Below are positions 1 through 12,631 of a stretch of 64,000 bases of DNA, one piece after another. Source of the stretch: Roridomyces roridus (taxonomy: Eukaryota; Basidiomycota; Agaricomycetes; Agaricales; Mycenaceae); assembly GCA_029378245.1 (NCBI GenBank), contig JARKIF010000030.1, positions 186,001 to 250,000 on the forward strand. Reading direction: 5' to 3'. Each line of letters opens with the position of its first letter. The first letter of the stretch is position 1. A model generated the notes under the pieces. That model saw nothing but the letters and a program-made list of their open reading frames with translations. It was not told the DNA's origin and ran no database searches. Made by a program: the position numbers and the translations under genes.

Positions 1-2
1 TC

Positions 3-2490
3 GACGACCAGCCGTTCAACGTCAATGACCAGAACCTGTACAAGATTGACGACGACGACGAGGAGCCCTTCGACGGGCTGGTGGACGAGCTGCAGCTGCA
101 GCAAGATCAGGAGCAGCGAAAACGCAGGCAGCGACGATACGCACAAGACCTACAGCAGGAGCATCAGCGGGAGCAACGACGGCAGGGTGTTTCGTCGTCT
201 TCAGCAGCGTACCCCGAGGAAGACGTTGACCCCCAGCTCGCACAGAACATACGCAAGGTCATGCGAGAGGTTAGACCTAACGACCCCGCGTTCGCCGAAG
301 ACCCCAAACCCAAACACCCTTTGGTGCGCAAAGGAGATTGGGTCTTACTCGAACGGGATCCCCGTGTGGTAGCGTACGTGCTGGATGACAGTGCACGCCG
401 TTTCGTCGTCGCAAACATCGTCGTCGAAAACAAGACGGAAAACCCCGAGAACAAGACGGAAAACCCAAAAGGCCTGCGAATCCGCACCAAGCGCAAGCCA
501 GTGACGCGCAAAGCAGCCCCCGTGGTGCATCCCACTGCCGACGATCTCCGCCCCTTCAAAAGTGCCCATCTCCGATTTGCAAAACCTTACTGGGGACGTA
601 CCTCCTACGCTCTCAGTCCTGGCGATCGAGCCTTCGTCGTTGACGGTCCCCACTGCAAATTTAGTGGATTGGTCGACCACCTGCTGAAGAACGAGCATGG
701 CGAATTCGTGGCCGTGCTCGTCGGCTGGCCGTCTGAGACCCCGCATCCCACGATTTCGCAGCTGCGCCGACACCTTCTGGACCCAGGCCCCGTTCCCCGC
801 ATCTGTGATCGTGTGCTCGTGGTCGATGGGCCCTACCGAGACAAGGTGGCTACCATCGAGTCCATCGAAGGACACATCATCAGGATTGGGAACTCGTCGA
901 TGGTGGAGCCTGTAGAAGTGGAGATCGGGCACGTCGCTAGATATTTTTTACCAGGGGATTCGGTATGGATGGCTGGCGAGGACCAGGGCGGTCTTCTGAC
1001 GGAGATGCAGCCATCGCTGGGCATGGTTTCCATCCTTGTCGATCCGCAGAGAGGCTTGGTATGTGCTTGAATAATGCTCTGGGCACCCACTGACCGTGAA
1101 TGCTAGATGAAGGAAGTCCCTCAGTCAGAAATCCACTTCGACTGGTCGGATTATCTGGGGTCCTGGACGCGCATCATTCCTTGGGGTCCATTGACTGACC
1201 AAGACCACGAGCGCGAGGAGCTCAAACTGCGAGCTCTCGTTGACGATGCTTACAAGCTAATGAAGTCTGAGAAAAAATCCGCCGCCGGCGGTATAACCTC
1301 GCGGCGCAAGCTGGTGGCCATTGCGAAGGCTGAGCACGCGTATAGGCAGAATCGGTGGTGGGACGCCGTCCAAGAACTAAAGGTGGCGACGGACCTCGAG
1401 CTCGAGGACGACGAGCATATCACTCGTCGACTGGCGGCAGTAATCTCGGCTCGGGCGAATGGGGCACTCAAGAAAACTCGAGAGCACAGCGAAGATCTGA
1501 CGGATTTCAATCGTAAGATGATGAAGACGGGGCTGCGTTTTGAAGGATTGGAAGTCAAGATTATCGCTCCAAATTATGGGTCGCGCACACTGAAAGAAAT
1601 AATAACGGGGGACCACGACTCCGAGGCCCGTCGCCGGCGGGAGAAGCTTAACAATGCCAAGGAGCTCCTTCGCCTCTGCCGACATGATCTGGAAGGGATA
1701 TTGGCCACCGTCTCCTACGACAAACACGCGCCGGTCGAAAACGTCCCTATCGAGTACATCGTGGAATGGGAGTAAGTGAATTTGCATGTCTTCCCTTTGC
1801 ATGTATTCATTTGAATGTAGAACCCAAATCCCGCTCTCCCGCGCCGTCTATGTCAAGCACGGCTGGAATTCTCGCACCTTCCAGCTGCCCGAGCCTCTCC
1901 CTCCTGCCCCTGCTCCCCCGCCTGCACGACCACCGACTCCGCCGCCCGACCCCTCAAGTTCCTTGTTGCCGTTCGAGTTGCCCGGAGAGACAGACGGTTC
2001 CTGGCTCTATCAGGGCAACCGTTTTGTCGGCAAGTCCCTCGAGGTCGTGGTGCACATCACCGCCAAGACGAAAGGCACCAGGAAACTGACCATCCGAGAT
2101 ACACAGAAGAGCAAAGAAGGAATGGGCGGTTTTTTGTTGGTCGCAACGGAGTACACGAAGGACAGTGTGATGACTGTCTACGGGCTGCCTCCGAGCGGGG
2201 TCCCCGTCAAGTTTACGGGCAGTTGCCTTGCACCGTCGAGGGTACATTCAGACGGGGTTCGTGTCGACGAGCGCATGAATGAGCGCGTCGTGATTATCGG
2301 CGAGGATTCCCTCCACGATGTGTCGCACATTGGCCAATACGGCCTGGTCGTTGACAAGCTGCCGCCGGAGCATGCGGTCGTGCAGCATGAGGACCGTTCT
2401 CGCCACCAGTACCATTGGAAATCTCTGTGTATTTCTACAAACAAGGAACGCTACCAGGGCGAAACCTCATTTCCCGCGACGATCTTCTAG
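3..2490 (+). CDS. KOW-repeat protein, Spt5-like (5' partial)
   Basis: The reading frame is open to the left edge, so the start lies outside the window. Model: <3..1058, 1107..1771, 1821..2490 with TAG stop; both introns (48 and 49 nt) are GT-AG and keep phase. The N-terminal part is acidic (DDDDEE) then Gln/Arg-rich. Several KOW-like segments follow, each a short beta-type stretch with G-D/V-V-x-G: KGDWVLLE, GDRAFVVDGPHCKFSGLV, CDRVLVVDGPYRDKVATI, PGDSVWMAGEDQGGL, and a C-terminal VVIIGEDSLHDVSHIGQYG. A proline-rich linker is encoded near 1890-1960. KOW motifs of this spacing are typical of Spt5/NusG-type transcription elongation factors, but I see no NGN domain and length differs from true Spt5. 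It ends only 269 bp before the KDZ transposase ATG on the same strand, so it may be a passenger of that element (inference). Family assignment is fair; role is unknown. Confidence 0.7.
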
Positions 2491-2759: not shown

Positions 2760-5700
2760 ATGGGTCGTTTGACCGCGAAGGATATCGAGGCAGTCAAGGC
2801 GTCGAGCTCCAAAGCCACCGCCCCCCCCAAACTTTTCCCGGTCAAAACCCCTGCGAACCTACTCAAGAAGAAGAATGCCAAAGAACCCGAACCCCTCGTA
2901 TTCTACGCCAACGGCCAGACTTTGAGCCAGCGCCTCCAGAAACCTCCCCAAGGCCAAGTCGGGTGGCGCGATGCGCGCAGCCGAGGAGGACCCCAGTCCT
3001 CCCCGACCAAACGGCAATATGCAGACGTTGCCTTGGCCAGTGAGGACAACTATGTTACAGCGGACTACATCCCAGGTCAGCCAGCTGCGCAGACGAGCCG
3101 CGCCGTGAAGAAGAGCAATCAATGGCACCGATGGACACACGAAGTCATCCCCGCGCTGGTGCCCGTGTTCGTCGATCTCATGCATCAGACTAAGTCCCTG
3201 CGCGACACTGCGGAACTGAGGCTGCAACATTCGGATTGCGCGTGCGCCAAACGCGCACTGTATGTCGCTGTAGTTCGGCTCAACGGTGCGTGTGCTTTGA
3301 AACCTTTACGACAGTGTTGTCATCGACCGAGGTCCGATCAGGTCTGACCGGGTTTATCTGATCCGGTCAGACTGTTGACCGCAATGGTCGGACTCGCAGT
3401 GATGGCCCATCAAATGTCGACAAATTGTACTTATTCCGCTCGTATTGCGCTAATATCAACGTCTCCACGGATTAAGTTACAAATCTAAGTCCTAGTGCAT
3501 CCCCTTGTGAGCCCCCGAAGACATCCTGTGCCTCTCCCGGTCTCGCCGCCGCTCTCGGTCCCGATCCCACTGTCGCCGCCTGGCTCGCGTCCATCTCCTG
3601 CTCCTCTGCATCCAACGACGCTCTCCCCACATCCCAATAGAACGCAAGATTTCGCTCCGTCTCGTCCGCGGGGTAAATGAACACTTCCTCAAGCAACACC
3701 TTCTTGAAGCGCGCAGGTACTCTCGCGCGGGGGTTATATTTAGTGGGTGCGGGTTGTGATGTTGTGCCCGAGTCTTCGTCTTCGTCGTTTCCTTCCCCCT
3801 CATCTCGCTCTGCCTCTGCGGTGGCCATCCCGATGAGTGCAGCGGAAAGCTGTTCAAACTCGTTCTCCACAGTCTCCAAGTCACCCATCTCGGCCGCCGT
3901 CAGTTGACCCGAGCCACCCTCTGCTTCCTCTCTCGATCCCTCCCCATCTGACTCGTTCCCCTCCTCCATCTGCTGCGGAACCATGTCATCGAGGCTGCAG
4001 TGCCGAGGCTTGCGCGGGGGAATTCGCCCCTCGTTTGCATGTGTCTGTAGACGATCCGCACGAACCAGCGACGTCTTGTGCACCTTCTGTGGATTCAGCC
4101 GATTACGGCGTTTGGAGTGAATCATGCCGAAGTCCGAGAAGACTCGTTCGGGGCCGGCAGAATTCGGTAGGATGCTGTGGATCCGGATCGCAAGTGCAAT
4201 GAACATTGAACGTCCGGCCGTCGGGGGTGCACTGCCCGTTAGATGGCGAAAAATTGTAACGAGCGGTAGAGGGGTTTTCTAAAAGGAACAGGTCAATCAA
4301 CGCGGAGGACCCAGTGATGGACGGAAAAAGACAGACTCGGGCTTTTGCTGCGTCGACGTAGTCTTGCAGCATGATGCTCTCGTCGGAGAAAAACCCAGAG
4401 TTGTCCTGCCAATCGGCGCAGGCCTGAGTGAAATCGATGTCTCCGGTAGGGTCGTATCGCAACAGACGCTTGACAGCGCGCCTAATCATCTGGAAAAAAA
4501 TTGACCGGAGGGTGTACTTCGGCATTGAAGTATTTATCGCGCACCAGCGGGTTCAAGTACACCGCAAGTAACATGAGCTCTTGGTCGGTCGCCTTCCAGC
4601 GGCGCTCCAAGCTGGCAAGGACGGCATCCTTCATGGCAGCCTCGTGTTCAGGCAGAGAGGAGAAGTAGCGATAGAGATTTCCGAGAGTGAGGACGACCAT
4701 ATCGAGTCTGCAGTATGGCGCCTGCAGGTTTGTAGAAGCGATCGCAAGCGGCTCGAGATGTTTGGCGGCACTGGATATGCAATGAGAGCCCGTCTTGTGC
4801 ACGAAAATAAAATAAAAACCCCACCGCTTGATGTTCGCCCAAAACTGAGGAGACGACGCGGTAGCCATAGCGCTCTCAGCGACTGCAATCTGTTCCTGTT
4901 TGCGGCCTATACAAGTACGAAGTTTGTCGCGATGGGCGATGACGGTGATGGTAATGGCATCTTCCAAAAGGATGAGCCGTCGGAGGCAGCAGTATTGAGA
5001 AAGCCAGCGCGTCAAAACGGGGAGTAATAGCATGAGGACGATGACACGAGTCCGAAGCTGTTCTGCGCGGAGACACTCGAGCGGAAAATAATGGTGAATG
5101 AAAAATTTGATCAGCTCGATCGCTTTTTTGATGTCTTCGAGCCAGGGTTCCTTGACTGCAAGGGCGTTACCGGTGATGAGGTGCATCTGGTGCGCCCAAC
5201 ACTCGAATACAGCAATCCAATTCATATTCTCCTTGATTAGACGTCGCATCTTCTTGCCGTCAGGGCCATTGTCGGTGCAAATCGCGATGACGTCCACACC
5301 GTACTTGTCGAGAGCATATCGGAGGTCGGTTTTGACAATCTCGTACAACTCGTCGCCCGTCTTTGGCCGCAACATCTTCTGCGAGCTCATCGAGTATCCG
5401 TCCAGAGAGTTTACGTCGGTCAGGGATGGTGTATGCAGGTAGATATTTTTCGAAAAAAGACCTGAACTCGGGGTTTGTGACTGCGTTCCAAGAGAAACCG
5501 CAGACAGTGAAAAGCGAACAAAGGTCTCGCTCGAATTGCTCCTGTGAGGGAGGAGACGACTGTATACTGGAGTAGGTGGAGTCGGTGGATGTTTTACGCC
5601 GTTTGGGTGGTGGGCCGACGAAAGGAGATGGTGATTGATAGACGGGAGGGGACGGGGAGTGTTGGAATGGCATCGCACCAAACGTTTGTGACAGCAGTGA

Positions 5701-8700
5701 AGGGATTGGGGCCGGGGACGGCGAGAAGGACATGGATGGAGAGTAGGAGGGGCCAGCAGAGCTGTTTGTGAAGAATCCTTGGCCGGTGTTCATCGTGTAC
5801 TGACTGTTGGCTGCTGCCATTGAGGTGCGCTTGGCAGAGAACTCGTCCGCCTCTTTGATAATGGTGTCGCGTAGTGCAGCTTCTGCAGGGTTATTGTTGA
5901 TGACACTGCAGTTCAGCAGATGTGTTCGCAGATTGGACGTCTTTCCGGAGATGTAGGAATGGTGTTGGGACGCTGTGAAAAGTCAGCTCACAATGCGGCG
6001 CGTGCCAGCGTATAACGACGCACCAGCGATATACCACTCTTTATCCGACTTTTGAGGGCCCATTTCGATCTGCAGCAGCCTCTGAGACGCCTCATTCGCC
6101 TTTGACTGAGCTATCCACGGCCTCATCTCTGCCAGGCACCACGCTCGATCGTGTCCAGCCTGCTTCACTCCGTCGGTATGGAAACCGTGCCAAAGAGGCT
6201 GTCGTTTCGTCGCATTGGGGTCATCAGCCTTTCGGCTACGCTGTTGGGGGCCAGACATGGGCAGGGGGAGGAAGACGCGCGCAGACGCGTCGTGGTGATT
6301 GGCAAAAGAGTGATGGGAATCTATTTCTAAATACAGACTTGACTTGATGCGACCTTGATCTGACCCGGTCCGACCTCCGCCAGTCAACCGCTGACATCTG
6401 ACCTTTGACCCGTCAAGTCGGACCTTGACAACACTGCTTTACGATGTATTCTGACTTTCACAAGCAATTGAGCATCAACGCGTCGACGTCTGCAAGTGCT
6501 CGCCTGCCCCAGCTACGCTGCTCCGAGCGGGATTGTTTCCCTGCTCGCCGGTCCACCCGAGCTTGGCCGTCGACATCAACGTACTCGACTTTGCGATGAC
6601 GCTGTTCGTGAACATGACGCCGAACAATACCGCCTTCAGTAATACCTTGGAGGCGTTTCTGCGGGGTCGCGGCTACAAGCTCACGACCAGGGCAAGTCCT
6701 TTGCATCTGAGACGTGCCTGTACTGACTAGAACGATTTAGGATACTCTGCGGATCCGGTTTGGCAACGCGCTCGAGTGGTATACCAGTTTGCAGCATGCC
6801 ACGCATGCCGCCGTTGACGCCACTCTCGAACTCGTCCGAGAGACGGTGATTGGTCCGAGCATCGCGAGCCCCGCATCCCCGTCGACAACTCCTGCGGGCT
6901 CAAGACCATGCACCCCGCCGCCACCGAGCCCCTCAGGCTCAGACTCGGACTCTTCAAGATCCGCGCCAGCAACCCCTACGGCAGCGCGTCCTGTGCCACC
7001 AGCGCCGTCTGGACGTAAAAGGCGGGCGCCAGACCGGGAGCACGAGCACGAGAGCAAGGCCAATCCTTTCCCAGACCCTCCGCCTCGCACGCGCCCTTCC
7101 GACTACTTGATCAGCCGGTGTCCGACTTGCTTTGGCGGCCTCGTCCACGACCCCACGGCTGCCTGCGACATCCACGTCTGTGCAGACGCTTGCTTTACTC
7201 AGAAGCGCCGGCGCGGTGGTCCTCGCGATCCCCCACGCACGCACCCTAACACGGTTTTCGTTCCCGAGCACACGACAGACGAGATGGGGGCTCATGTCGA
7301 GGACGTGCGTCCCGTTAGAGGTCAAACAAAGAAGCGAGCCAGACCTTCGGAGGAGGAAGATCATTACGAGCACCAGGACCTGCGAGTTCCGCGCACCGTG
7401 CTGGACGACTGTCGGGACTCCTTCATCGCTGCAGACGAGAAGCGCGAGAAGGCCAGCACCAAGTTCTTCGAGGATACGGGCGTGATGGGTCTCCTTTGCC
7501 GCCACGACCGTGTTTTGTGGCTGGTGAATATGCGGAGCTCGAGCGAGAAGCAGTACTTCGTGCTCGTGCTCTTGGAGACGCTGTTTCAGCATCTCCCGCT
7601 TAACATACGCATTGGAATCCTCTACGATATCGCCTGCCAGCTCCACCGTTCCTGCGTCAAGTACAAGTTCATGGAGCGGTACATGGACCGCATGATATTC
7701 GCGGTGTCCGTCTTCCACGCGTTCGGGCATCGTTGGCCGTGCCAGTTGATATACCATCCCATGAAGTGCTGTGGGTTTGGGCACACCAACGGCGAAGGCT
7801 GCGAGCGCTTTTGGCACTCGATCAGCAAGCTCATTGCTTATCTGCGAGTCACTGGGGTAAGTTCTCCCTTCGTTTTTAGAATCACCGCAGACGCTAACGA
7901 ATAATCAGTATCATGTGCGTTTGTACACTATCGACAGTCAAATTCAGCACGCAGACAAGATGAGTCTCGGGCGCATGGGCTCCTGGATCCTTCGCCGCAC
8001 CGAGCACTGCGAGAACAAGATGCGCGAGGCGCGCGCGGACTTGGTGGCCTGCGGCGTTCCCGTGGCTCAACTTAGGGTGCAATGGGCGGATCAGGTGAAG
8101 GTTCAGACTCAGCCGCTGAAGTGTAAGTGTTCTTTCTTCATTCTGGTGGGCGTCCTATACTAATGTTGACCTCAGCGCAGTCGAAGAACGCCGCCAAACA
8201 AGCCGTGGATACAATCATTGCTGCCCGCGCCAAGCAACAGCAACTCTGGCAGCGGTGGAAAGCCCTGAGCGAGACGCAGGTGAATGAGGACGCCGACGCC
8301 GAAGCACACGACTATGCAACGACCCATGTCCAAGACGCGCTCAAAGCATGGGAAACTCAAGCTGCAAAGACCAAGCAACTCAAGCGCACCCTCGGCGTCA
8401 ACGACAGCACCATTCTCAAGAAACTCAAGTTCACCGACTATTACACCGCCCGCATGAACGCAAGAGCTGTCAAGGACCGTCTTCGCGCCCGCTTGCGAGA
8501 CCGTAAATTCGAAATGGACCCCATTGAGCGTTCGGTACGACGTACTCGCAGTGGTACGTCTCATATTCACGCTACCGAATCCAGCCGCTGACGCGGCGAG
8601 AGCAGAAAACCAGCGCAACGAACACGCAGGAGCAGCCATTAAGCGCCGCGAGCCCAATATCAGTCGTTTGGTGCAGACGTACAACAAACTCTGCGAGCAG

Positions 8701-9393
8701 ATCCAGAGCTTGATCTCCAAGAAGAAGGCGCCTCCTCATTCCGTGGCCCCGTTGCCCGTGCCGTCCAAAGGCATCTACCAGCTGGACGTTGACGATGTCA
8801 TCTGGCAGGACCTTGGCTTGGACGAGGAGGAGAGCCGACCTCCGTTGTGGTTAAGCGACGAAAAAGTGCGGACGGGCATACGGGCAATGTTGATGGTGGA
8901 TCGCTGTAACGAGGAGTCTGCGCGCCTGACGCGCGAGCATGCACATCTGTTCGTCTGGTTCCAGAATGAGTGGAAGACGATACAGATGGCGATTGCTCAG
9001 TCAGAGGGTACGTATTCTTTCTGTTCTGGCGAGGAGTGTGCTCAATCCGACCTAGGTGCGGTTCGTTATCAGATGGAACGTCGACGCGAGGAGCTGCTGC
9101 AGCTCTGTGTGCTCTGGCGGAAGTCGTTAGACCGCATACCGCTACCGACAGAGCAGCAATGGGGACCGACGGATGATGAGTTTCTGGTGTGTGAGATAGC
9201 GGAGGCTACCGCGGCCTGGGGTGATGGAGAGCAGGTGATGGAGAGCGAGGACGAGGATTTGTCGGACGAGGATGAGCAGGAGGATGAGGATGAGGCTATT
9301 TTCCACGTCGTTGCGGCGGTGGAACGGGCTGACAACCACCGAGCGGGGGACGAAGTGGACGCGCTGTCTTGGGATGACGATGCCGAATTGTAA
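2760..9393 (+). CDS. KDZ-superfamily transposase
   Basis: DNA transposase of the fungal Kyakuja-Dileera-Zisupton group, expected to cut and move its own element. Model: 2760..3285, 6465..6691, 6741..7856, 7909..8122, 8176..8553, 8606..9007, 9056..9393; phases agree and the sum is 3201 nt (1066 aa), a usual KDZ length. Visible parts: N-terminal WHRWTHEVIPAL block and Cys-rich HSDCACAK; CKCSPAP...LFPCSPVHPSLAVD, typical of the KDZ-associated cysteine cluster; a second cluster CPTCFGG...CDIHVCADAC; the RNase H-type core with candidate acidic residues in HVCAD, YDIACQ and NGEGCERFWHS; a long helical C-terminus ending in an acidic tail. Intron 1 (3286-6464) contains a complete hAT transposon; without it and one target copy the intron would be 46 nt. 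Intron 2 (6692-6740) starts GC. The KDZ termini were not identified. Whether the long intron is spliced decides if the gene works. Confidence 0.9.
3304..3311. repeat. Left target-site duplication of the hAT element
   Basis: CTTTACGA, identical to 6437-6444. It lies 18 nt inside KDZ intron 1. Confidence 0.95.
3312..6436 (-). mobile_element. hAT DNA transposon inserted in KDZ intron 1
   Basis: Element of 3125 bp bounded by an 11-bp perfect terminal inverted repeat, CAGTGTTGTCA, which fits the hAT superfamily. It is flanked by a perfect 8-bp target duplication, CTTTACGA (3304-3311 and 6437-6444), the size expected for hAT. Subterminal regions are rich in GGTCAGA/GGTCCGA-like motifs. It encodes a hAT transposase on the minus strand. 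Removing the element plus one target copy leaves a 46-nt intron with GTGCGT donor, a CTGAC branch site and AAG acceptor. Confidence 0.95.
3472..6258 (-). pseudogene. hAT transposase, degenerate
   Basis: Begins at the ATG on 6258 with a BED/zinc-finger-type N-terminus (PLWHGFHTDGVKQ, then after an intron KTSNLRTHLLNC), continues with an S/P-rich linker, the RNase H region (AICTDNGPDGKKMRRL, CWAHQMHL) and ends with the hAT dimerisation region (ILPNSAGPERVFSDFG...HSKRRNRL) and an acidic tail. Two breaks are visible. Around 5390 the frame jumps from ...RILDELAEDV to KTGDELYEIV, with about 50 residues of the usual catalytic N-part missing. At about 4495-4501 a T-run shifts the frame between VNFF and QMIRRAVKRL. 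One more intron probably lies before the C-terminal block near 4210-4290. Probably not able to make an active enzyme; homopolymer sequencing error could explain the second break only. Confidence 0.75.
6437..6444. repeat. Right target-site duplication of the hAT element
   Basis: CTTTACGA, identical to 3304-3311; it is followed by the branch site and acceptor of the interrupted KDZ intron. Confidence 0.95.
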
Positions 9394-11205: not shown

Positions 11206-11664
11206 AGGTGGGAATACCCACAATTAAGGAGAGAGCCAGGTGGGTATACCCACCGCTGAATAGTCCCAGTGAGGATACCCACCACCTTGGTGGGGCAAAG
11301 TGGGCATACCTCCAGTGGGCATACCCACTTGTCGTGTTCCAAGAGTAGGTATCCCCACCTTGCAAACAGGAGAGTGGGGATACCCACCTCACTGATGGCA
11401 CGGTGGTGGGGATACCCACCTCGCGTTTGGTGGAGTGAGGATACCCACCGTCAGTGTACTCCCCTTTGTGGGGATACCCGCGGTGGGTATACCCACCTCA
11501 TCATGGAAAGAGTGGGGATACCCACCGTCAGTGTACTCACTGTTTGTGGGGATACCCGCGGTGGGATACCCACCTCACTTTAGAAAGAGTGGGTATACCC
11601 ACAGTGAGTATGCCCACCTTGGAGATGAGACAGTGGGTATACCTACGGTGGGTACACCCCCTCT
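11206..11664. repeat. Array of palindromic GTGGGTATACCCAC motifs
   Basis: Roughly 15 or more copies, perfect or one to two bases off, of a 14-16 bp palindrome (full form GGTGGGTATACCCACC). Some are fused at CCCGCGGTGGG. A higher-order ~76-78 bp tandem duplication is visible at about 11436-11588. Spacing between palindromes is irregular, about 20-45 bp. Confidence 0.9.
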
Positions 11665-12027
11665 GAAATTAGTAGGGCAGTTTATAGAGGTTCGGCACTG
11701 TAGCGGACACGGTACAATTGTACTTTTACGGCGTAGTATGGCACCACTCTGTACCATATCCGTACTGTACTGGGCCCGGTAGCCAGGACACCGGCAGCAC
11801 TCATGGTGACCCAGATTGCACATTGGTTCTCGCATAGTTAAATTCAAAAAGGCTAGACACTATACGAAAACCGAACAAAAAAATCACTGAAGCAAACTGG
11901 GTACCACCAACCCAGCAACAGGCATGACTGTATGGACCGTCATTTATGGCTTGAAAATATCAAAAATCAAGCTAGTTCATCAGCTACTAGCCAGCACACA
12001 AGAAAGAACCGGTACGGGATGCAAAAG
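11665..12027. other. No gene seen between repeat blocks
   Basis: Unique-looking sequence separating the palindrome array from the minisatellite. Confidence 0.4.
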
Positions 12028-12430
12028 GAGCTGGGCTGCTGGCACCCAGCCAGGGGCTAGCACCAGGCACGAGAACCGCCCGTACAGCCCCGAAATTTGC
12101 CCAGCAAGCTGGGCTGGCACCCAGCCAGGGGCCAGCAGCAGGCACAAAAACCACCCCGTACAGCCCCAAAATCCCCAAAACGAGCTGGGCTACTAGCCAC
12201 CATCCAGGGGCCAGCAGCAGGCACGAAAACTGCCCTGTACAGCCCCAAAATCCCCAAAACGAGCTGGGCTACTAGCCACCAGCCAGGGGCCAGAAGCAGG
12301 CATGAAAGCTGCCCTGTACAGCCATGAAAATCCCCAAAACGAGCTGGCCTGCTAGCCAACAGCCGGGGGCCACAAGCGGGCACAAAAACCGCCCCATACA
12401 GCCCCCAGAATCGCAAAAAACGAGCTGGCT
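12028..12430. repeat. ~79-bp minisatellite, about 5-6 copies
   Basis: The phrase GAGCTGGGCT or a close variant recurs at 12028, 12106, 12182, 12261, 12341 and 12422, giving periods of 76-81 bp. Each unit contains CAGCC(A)GGGGCCA, GCACRAAAAC and TACAGCCCC blocks. Confidence 0.9.
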
Positions 12431-12548
12431 CGGTGGGAGGTGGGTATACCCACCATGCAGTGTGACGTGACATGGTGGGTATCCCCAGGTAGGTATACCC
12501 ACCGCCGTGGGTGGGTGCACCACCACTGCGTATACCCACTTCCTGGGA
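12431..12548. repeat. Second cluster of GTGGGTATACCCAC palindromes
   Basis: Four to five more copies of the same palindrome directly after the minisatellite, 80 bp before the next gene. Confidence 0.85.
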
Positions 12549-12631
12549 CCTACTTAGGCCCCACCCCTCAGCCATATGTCAAGCCTAAGTAGGTAGGCTT
12601 TGAGGTAGCCTGAAGTGCCTCTTGCCACGAC

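What the first reader, a model, noticed from the sequence alone, without database searches (positions are those of the whole stretch)
3286..6464. A complete hAT transposon lies inside a spliceosomal intron of a KDZ transposase gene
The 8-bp duplications CTTTACGA and CAGTGTTGTCA ends fix the hAT borders to the base. Without the element the intron is 46 nt with normal donor, branch site and acceptor; with it, 3179 nt. Exon phases on both sides match exactly. So one DNA transposon has parasitised another at a place where splicing could hide it, leaving the KDZ protein possibly functional. The hAT is in antisense to the KDZ gene, so transcripts of both would overlap.
Basis: partly seen in the sequence, partly recalled or inferred. 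Interest (0 to 1): 0.8.

Follow-up and report, generated by a model that had tools for sequence, protein, structure and literature searches.

The report
Jumping gene inside another's intron
In a mushroom genome, a crippled cut-and-paste transposon has recently landed inside a tiny intron of another transposon-type gene, leaving that gene's protein code intact; it is a clean example of a familiar kind of event, and similar insertions occur in related genes.

Summary
A hAT element (3312-6436; 8-bp duplication CTTTACGA; 11-bp perfect inverted ends) sits in phase-1 intron 1 (3286-6464) of a KDZ transposase gene. All five close paralogs found in the same assembly (very probably Roridomyces roridus) lack it; four keep one uninterrupted CTTTACGA and three have exactly the predicted 46-nt intron. 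The intron recurs at the same position and phase in a more distant KDZ gene. The exon join aligns without gaps in 71 of 103 homologous proteins that span it. Of the six copies only the window's has no coding lesion, taking its own frame (1066 aa) as yardstick.

Corrections: the hAT is not complete; it lacks about 195 bp, with the DGWSN motif, that four relatives keep. KDZ element ends were not found. Splicing of the 3,179-nt intron is unproven: the deposited gene model starts inside the hAT, and the hAT has a cryptic acceptor-like site at 3370 leading to a quick stop.

New: an 875-bp DNA element sits at the start of the same intron in one paralog, and a relative of it fills intron 5 of another KDZ gene. 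All 3 expanded introns, of 53 examined, are explained by DNA elements.

Verdict: real, a known kind of event; moderate interest.

The parts
2760..3285 (+). KDZ gene exon 1
   Evidence: conserved in paralogs and homologous proteins
3286..6464 (+). KDZ intron 1, phase 1, 46 nt without the hAT, 3179 nt with it
   Evidence: same position and phase in L042
3304..3311 (.). left target-site duplication CTTTACGA
   Evidence: one copy in L023, L024, L025, L026
3312..6436 (-). hAT element, 3125 bp, internally deleted; transposase gene on the minus strand
3312..3322 (.). left inverted end CAGTGTTGTCA
6426..6436 (.). right inverted end TGACAACACTG
6437..6444 (.). right target-site duplication CTTTACGA
5983..6258 (-). 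first coding part of the hAT transposase remnant, approximate (ATG at 6258 by eye)
5372..5982 (-). second coding part of the hAT remnant, up to the internal deletion (approximate)
5370..5372 (.). point of the ~195-bp deletion that removes DGWSN, present in L030-L033
4482..5370 (-). part of the hAT remnant like fungal 'ribonuclease H-like' proteins
3472..4278 (-). C-terminal part with hAT dimerisation-like stretch
   Evidence: PF05699, E 7.4e-4, 19.7 bits, under the 21.4 cut-off
3341..3370 (+). cryptic branch-like CTGAC (3344) and acceptor-like CAG (ending 3370) in the hAT; an 85-nt intron then a stop at the third codon
   Evidence: pattern; translation
5287..5428 (+). first exon of the deposited model P0002, read from hAT DNA antisense to its gene
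6465..6691 (+). KDZ exon 2 (most of the CxC1 domain)
6741..7856 (+). KDZ exon 3 (KDZ core)
7909..8122 (+). KDZ exon 4
8176..8553 (+). KDZ exon 5
8606..9007 (+). KDZ exon 6
9056..9393 (+). KDZ exon 7, stop at 9391-9393

Best explanation
A defective hAT element, most likely carried by transposase from a relative with near-identical ends in the same genome, inserted recently into the 46-nt first intron of one copy of a multi-copy KDZ transposase gene and made the usual 8-bp duplication. Because it landed between donor and branch site, the native splice signals remain and the coding sequence is unchanged; splicing out the 3,179-nt intron would still give full-length KDZ protein. The copy is free of lesions either because the insertion is tolerated or because it is young. 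Shown: borders, duplication, empty sites, intron position and phase, intact frame, hAT deletion. Inferred: trans-mobilisation, and that splicing works at least part of the time (about even odds).
For: 8/8 duplication and inverted ends. 5 of 5 paralogs found lack the hAT, 4 with one uninterrupted CTTTACGA. Intron at the same site and phase in L042. 71 of 103 homologous proteins spanning the junction align without gaps within 10 residues. Joining exon 1 to exon 2 takes CxC1 from 37.8 bits (exon 2 alone) to 40.8 and from profile position 38 back to 12. With the window frame as yardstick each of 5 paralogs has at least one coding indel. Nearest KDZ copy differs by 16 of 3501 bases, so the insertion is young. 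About 195 bp with DGWSN are missing that L030-L033 keep; those four are 99.8-99.9% alike and 84% like the window copy, yet the terminal 40 bp match at 37 and 39 positions.
Against: No RNA data. The deposited model of this gene, P0002, omits exon 1 and starts inside the hAT. Introns 3-5 in related genes are about 46-61 nt with one exception, so a 3.2-kb intron may not be recognised, and an acceptor-like site at 3370 would give a normal-sized 85-nt intron ending in a stop. The deletion could have followed the insertion, in which case no trans-mobilisation is needed. Whether L030-L033 make working transposase was not tested.
Confidence: 0.8

Rival explanations
1. The hAT now breaks the KDZ gene: the spliceosome pairs the old donor with the acceptor-like site at 3370, or fails on the long intron, so only truncated protein is made. 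The intact frame merely reflects youth.
For: Branch-like CTGAC 3344 and CAG ending 3370 give an 85-nt intron followed by a stop at the third codon; introns 3-5 in this gene family are about 46-61 nt with one exception; the insertion is young.
Against: Native donor, branch-like site and acceptor are all present. By the window's own frame every other copy already carries a coding indel, so this copy is not the one decaying first.
Confidence: 0.4
2. The hAT supplies a new first exon: transcription starts in hAT DNA, and exon 5287-5428 is spliced to 6465, giving a 930-aa protein with a hAT-antisense start, most of CxC1 and the KDZ core.
For: This is the deposited model P0002, with the join in phase. 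It still scores 33.0 bits for CxC1, over the cut-off.
Against: It could be a gene-prediction rescue: it drops exon 1, which homologous proteins have, and lowers CxC1 from 40.8 to 33.0 bits. P0001, the model for the damaged C57 copy, also departs from the paralog structure at this junction (by eye). Whether RNA supports either model is unknown.
Confidence: 0.1
3. KDZ introns are favoured or tolerated landing sites: insertions that fall there persist while exonic hits are lost or fatal.
For: 3 of 5 larger insertions seen in KDZ genes lie in introns, which are 8.6% of gene length: binomial 0.0055, or 0.039 leaving out the one that drew attention. L026 intron 1 and C442 intron 5 carry the 875-bp family.
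Against: Five events only, one family giving two of the three; exonic insertions were looked for systematically only in the six close copies. L026 also has an exonic insert, so nothing was protected there. At ten other sites of this hAT family no intron was recognisable, one (L039a) unresolved.
Confidence: 0.25
4. The hAT sequence created the intron itself (introner-like) rather than entering an old one.
For: DNA transposons do make introns elsewhere (PMC9860276, passages read).
Against: The intron is present, 46-48 nt, in four paralogs without any insert, and about 55 nt in L042.
Confidence: 0.01

Closest known systems
Nested DNA-transposon insertions and intronic transposons in general (recalled)
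   Same: One element inside another's gene, in an intron, with target duplication
   Different: Borders, empty 46-nt site and intact host frame are all documented here, with a second element in the same intron of a paralog
Maize Ac/Ds (hAT): internally deleted Ds moved by Ac (PMC3260210, start of abstract seen in a listing)
   Same: hAT-type element, internally deleted copy with conserved ends beside longer relatives
   Different: Ds being spliced out of exons is recalled, not read here; in this case the element lies in an existing intron
Introners (PMC9860276, passages read)
   Same: DNA elements whose duplications meet splice sites
   Different: No new intron is made; the intron pre-dates the element
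Fungal KDZ transposons, Kyakuja and Zisupton (PMC12730594, passages read)
   Same: KDZ-type transposase gene in an agaricomycete
   Different: Element ends and 7- or 8-bp duplications were not found for this gene; a TET/JBP neighbour was not looked for

Membership tests
hAT superfamily | 8-bp target duplication | tested here: met
   8/8 in the window; exact 8 bp in 7 of 12 other copies examined, two of the 7 sharing one site
hAT superfamily | short inverted ends of CAG type (recalled) | tested here: met
   11 perfect bp, CAGTGTTGTCA
hAT superfamily | hAT C-terminal dimerisation domain PF05699 | tested here: inconclusive
   19.7 bits against a cut-off of 21.4; L030 20.3; several homologs of the middle part carry PF05699 and/or PF04937
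hAT superfamily | complete DDE catalytic set (first Asp in a DGW-type motif, recalled) | tested here: not met
   the DGWSN motif lies in the segment missing from the window copy and kept in L030-L033: a member by ends and descent, not an active one
KDZ transposase gene | PF18758 core | tested here: met
   E 5e-58, positions 3-217 of 217
KDZ transposase gene | CxC1 cysteine cluster | tested here: met
   40.8 bits with exons joined, cut-off 26.9
complete KDZ transposon | element ends with 7- or 8-bp duplication | tested here: inconclusive
   no ends found; shared segment exceeds the stretches fetched or is broken by another insert
spliceosomal intron at 3286-6464 | GT-AG, branch-like site, conserved position and phase | tested here: met
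spliceosomal intron at 3286-6464 | excised in RNA | not testable with these tools
   no RNA reads available
Introner | insertion creates the intron | tested here: not met
   intron exists without the element

The most novel reading that the evidence does not exclude
The 875-bp element (6-bp duplication) seeks or survives best at splice junctions of KDZ genes: in L026 its duplication is the donor itself (GTGAGT/GTGCGT, the outer copy changed to consensus), and in C442 it lies about 4 nt before exon 6 by match coordinates. Together with the hAT, KDZ introns would then be recurrent, splice-masked refuges where DNA transposons stack inside other transposons without killing them.
Probability: 0.1. 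Interest if true: 0.65.

Novelty: new member of a known kind. Interest (0 to 1): 0.38.

Why it matters
It is an unusually clean natural experiment: near-identical gene copies with an empty 46-nt intron, a 3.2-kb hAT-filled one and a 0.9-kb one filled by another element, all in one genome. That makes two questions directly testable by RNA-seq: how long an intron a fungus with mostly tiny introns can splice, and whether introns of transposon genes serve as refuges for other transposons.

Tried and rejected
Rejected: new-intron (introner) origin, by the empty introns. Not supported: a general preference of this hAT family for introns; at ten other insertion sites none was recognisable (judged by open frames and by eye, no family search of the flanks; L039a, with a GGTGAGT 16 nt before the element and no clear right end, is unresolved). 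Rejected: KDZ unit end at -4600; that break is an 875-bp-family element beside the L024 copy. Led nowhere: a full protein alignment timed out (replaced by local comparison); inverted-repeat search for KDZ ends. Literature: hAT in a basidiomycete intron (0 papers), Roridomyces with transposable elements (0), a transposon in a transposase-gene intron (2 listed; 10 of 32 listed), KDZ with intron (8 listed), intron length and definition (4 listed); nothing on point in the listings, but these searches do not show that the case is unpublished.

Full report
What was checked. The window is C224:186001-250000 of a 90.8-Mb assembly. The lengths of contigs C224 (738,335) and C57 (1,507,652), given, equal those listed for two Roridomyces roridus KDZ proteins, P0002 and P0001, so the source is very probably that mushroom. 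The hAT borders, duplication and inverted ends are as described. Beyond the first 11 bases the inverted ends match only imperfectly.

The intron is real and older than the insertion. Searching the flanks against the same genome gave five other copies of the KDZ gene. In L023, L024 and L025 the intron is 46 nt with one CTTTACGA; L026 also has one uninterrupted CTTTACGA; L027, the most distant, has a diverged 48-nt intron; none has the hAT end there. The KDZ gene on C423 (L042, about 39% identical over residues 390-817) has an intron at the same place and phase. At protein level one search listed 120 of 199 homologs; 115 of these 120 matched the region, 103 spanned the junction, and 71 of these had no gap within 10 residues. 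The other 32 had a gap there and 12 did not span, among them P0001 and P0002. A few of the 71 are aligned without gaps but are unlike the query on one side (for example P0017 and P0030).

The host gene. The gene model has seven exons and 1066 residues (a first version kept a 48-nt in-frame intron and had 1082). Intron 2 begins GC. KDZ and CxC1 domains score above cut-off, and CxC1 extends into exon 1 when exons 1 and 2 are joined (exon 1 alone matched no family). Coding indels relative to the window copy: L023 a 22-bp deletion near the C-terminus; L024 a 1-bp insertion, a 13-bp and a 15-bp deletion; L025 deletions of 233, 1 and 14 bp; L026 a 734-bp insertion in exon 2; L027 a 784-bp insertion in exon 3 and several small indels. 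So the copy with the hAT is the only one of six without a coding indel by this yardstick; the yardstick is the window copy itself, so some of the smaller differences may not be damage. None of the five has a stop made by substitution. Substitutions: L026 16 of 3501, L024 24 of 3473, L023 29 of 3479, L025 31 of 3253, L027 243 of 3495. The insertion thus post-dates a split of about 0.5%.

The hAT. It is 84% like L030-L033, which are 99.8-99.9% like each other and lie at three sites, L031 and L032 sharing one: probably a recently mobile lineage. The window copy lacks about 195 bp (196 by BLAST) with the DGWSN motif, which all four keep; its coding pieces either side lie in different frames, and whether an intron could still bridge them was not tested. 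The outermost 40 bp differ from those four at 3 positions on the left and 1 on the right, so cross-mobilisation is plausible; it is not shown. Whether L030-L033 encode working transposase was not tested.

Would it be spliced? Native signals are intact. Against that, introns 3-5 of related KDZ genes, 41 in 15 genes measured by match spacing, are about 46-61 nt, except one, and the hAT brings a branch-like CTGAC and CAG at 3370 that would end the protein two codons later. The deposited model P0002 takes its first 47 residues from 5287-5427 in the hAT and splices to 6465. The basis of that model (RNA or prediction) is unknown to me. I put the chance that full-length joins occur at a meaningful level near one half.

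Recurrence. In L026 the same intron is 927 nt because an element of 875 bp with inverted ends sits after its first six bases; the duplicated six read GTGAGT and GTGCGT, against GTGCGT in the window and the four other paralogs. One search gave 31 end-to-end matches including this one, a lower bound because only 40 of 51 candidates were scored; exact 6-bp duplications were present in 7 of 10 copies sampled, one more matched at 5 of 6, two had none. In the KDZ gene on C442 intron 5 measures about 937 nt, and a member of that family fills 876 of it; only coordinates were seen there. Counting intron 1 in 7 genes, intron 2 in 5 and introns 3-5 in 41 places (one pair, C79b, could not be assigned and was dropped), 3 of 53 introns are expanded, all by DNA elements. 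Intron 6 was not counted. The binomial figures (0.0055; 0.039 without the first case) rest on five larger insertions (hAT; 875-bp in L026; LTR-like in L026 exon 2; unidentified 784 bp in L027 exon 3; 875-bp family in C442), a gene length taken from the window copy, and partial ascertainment.

What is known. Passages of PMC12730594 give 8-bp duplications for Zisupton and 7-bp for Kyakuja; this KDZ unit's ends were not found. Passages of PMC9860276 describe introners whose duplications supply splice sites. Insertion of transposons in introns and in each other is long known (recalled). The finding is therefore a well-documented new instance, with an unexpected recurrence that deserves a genome-wide count.

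Noticed in passing
L026:4045-4919 (C124): 875-bp DNA element with 6-bp duplication at the donor of the same intron; the outer donor differs by one base from the other copies and reads GTGAGT.
   Followed up: partly
C442:2988338-2989213 (coordinates only): Member of the 875-bp family fills intron 5 of another KDZ gene, apparently ending about 4 nt before exon 6.
   Followed up: partly
L026:5138-5866: Insert in KDZ exon 2 with TGTTA...TAACA ends and 5-bp duplication GCCTT, like a solo LTR; a partial copy of the same compound stretch lies about 43 kb away in L028.
   Followed up: partly
window 6692-6740: KDZ intron 2 begins GC (GCAAGT) in the window and in the four paralogs that keep it.
   Followed up: no
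window 1-2490 and upstream: KOW-domain gene (Spt5-like by eye) shared by the KDZ copies; the unit shared with L024 is at least 13 kb without the hAT, and 3 of the 6 KDZ copies lie within 55 kb of a contig end.
   Followed up: partly
L034 (C228:2083-2861): A hAT relative is itself interrupted by a member of the 875-bp family.
   Followed up: no
L030-L033: Four hAT copies 99.8-99.9% identical, probably a recently mobile lineage distinct from the window's copy.
   Followed up: partly
L035-L040: Short (about 1.2-1.7 kb) relatives sharing the hAT ends; the L038 copy is flanked by open frames that look copia-like by eye.
   Followed up: no
window 11230-12620: Cluster of GTGGGTATACCCAC-type repeats downstream of the KDZ gene.
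   Followed up: no
P0001 (C57 copy): Deposited model of the copy with a 233-bp deletion uses a shifted intron-1 acceptor, possibly an annotation rescue.
   Followed up: no
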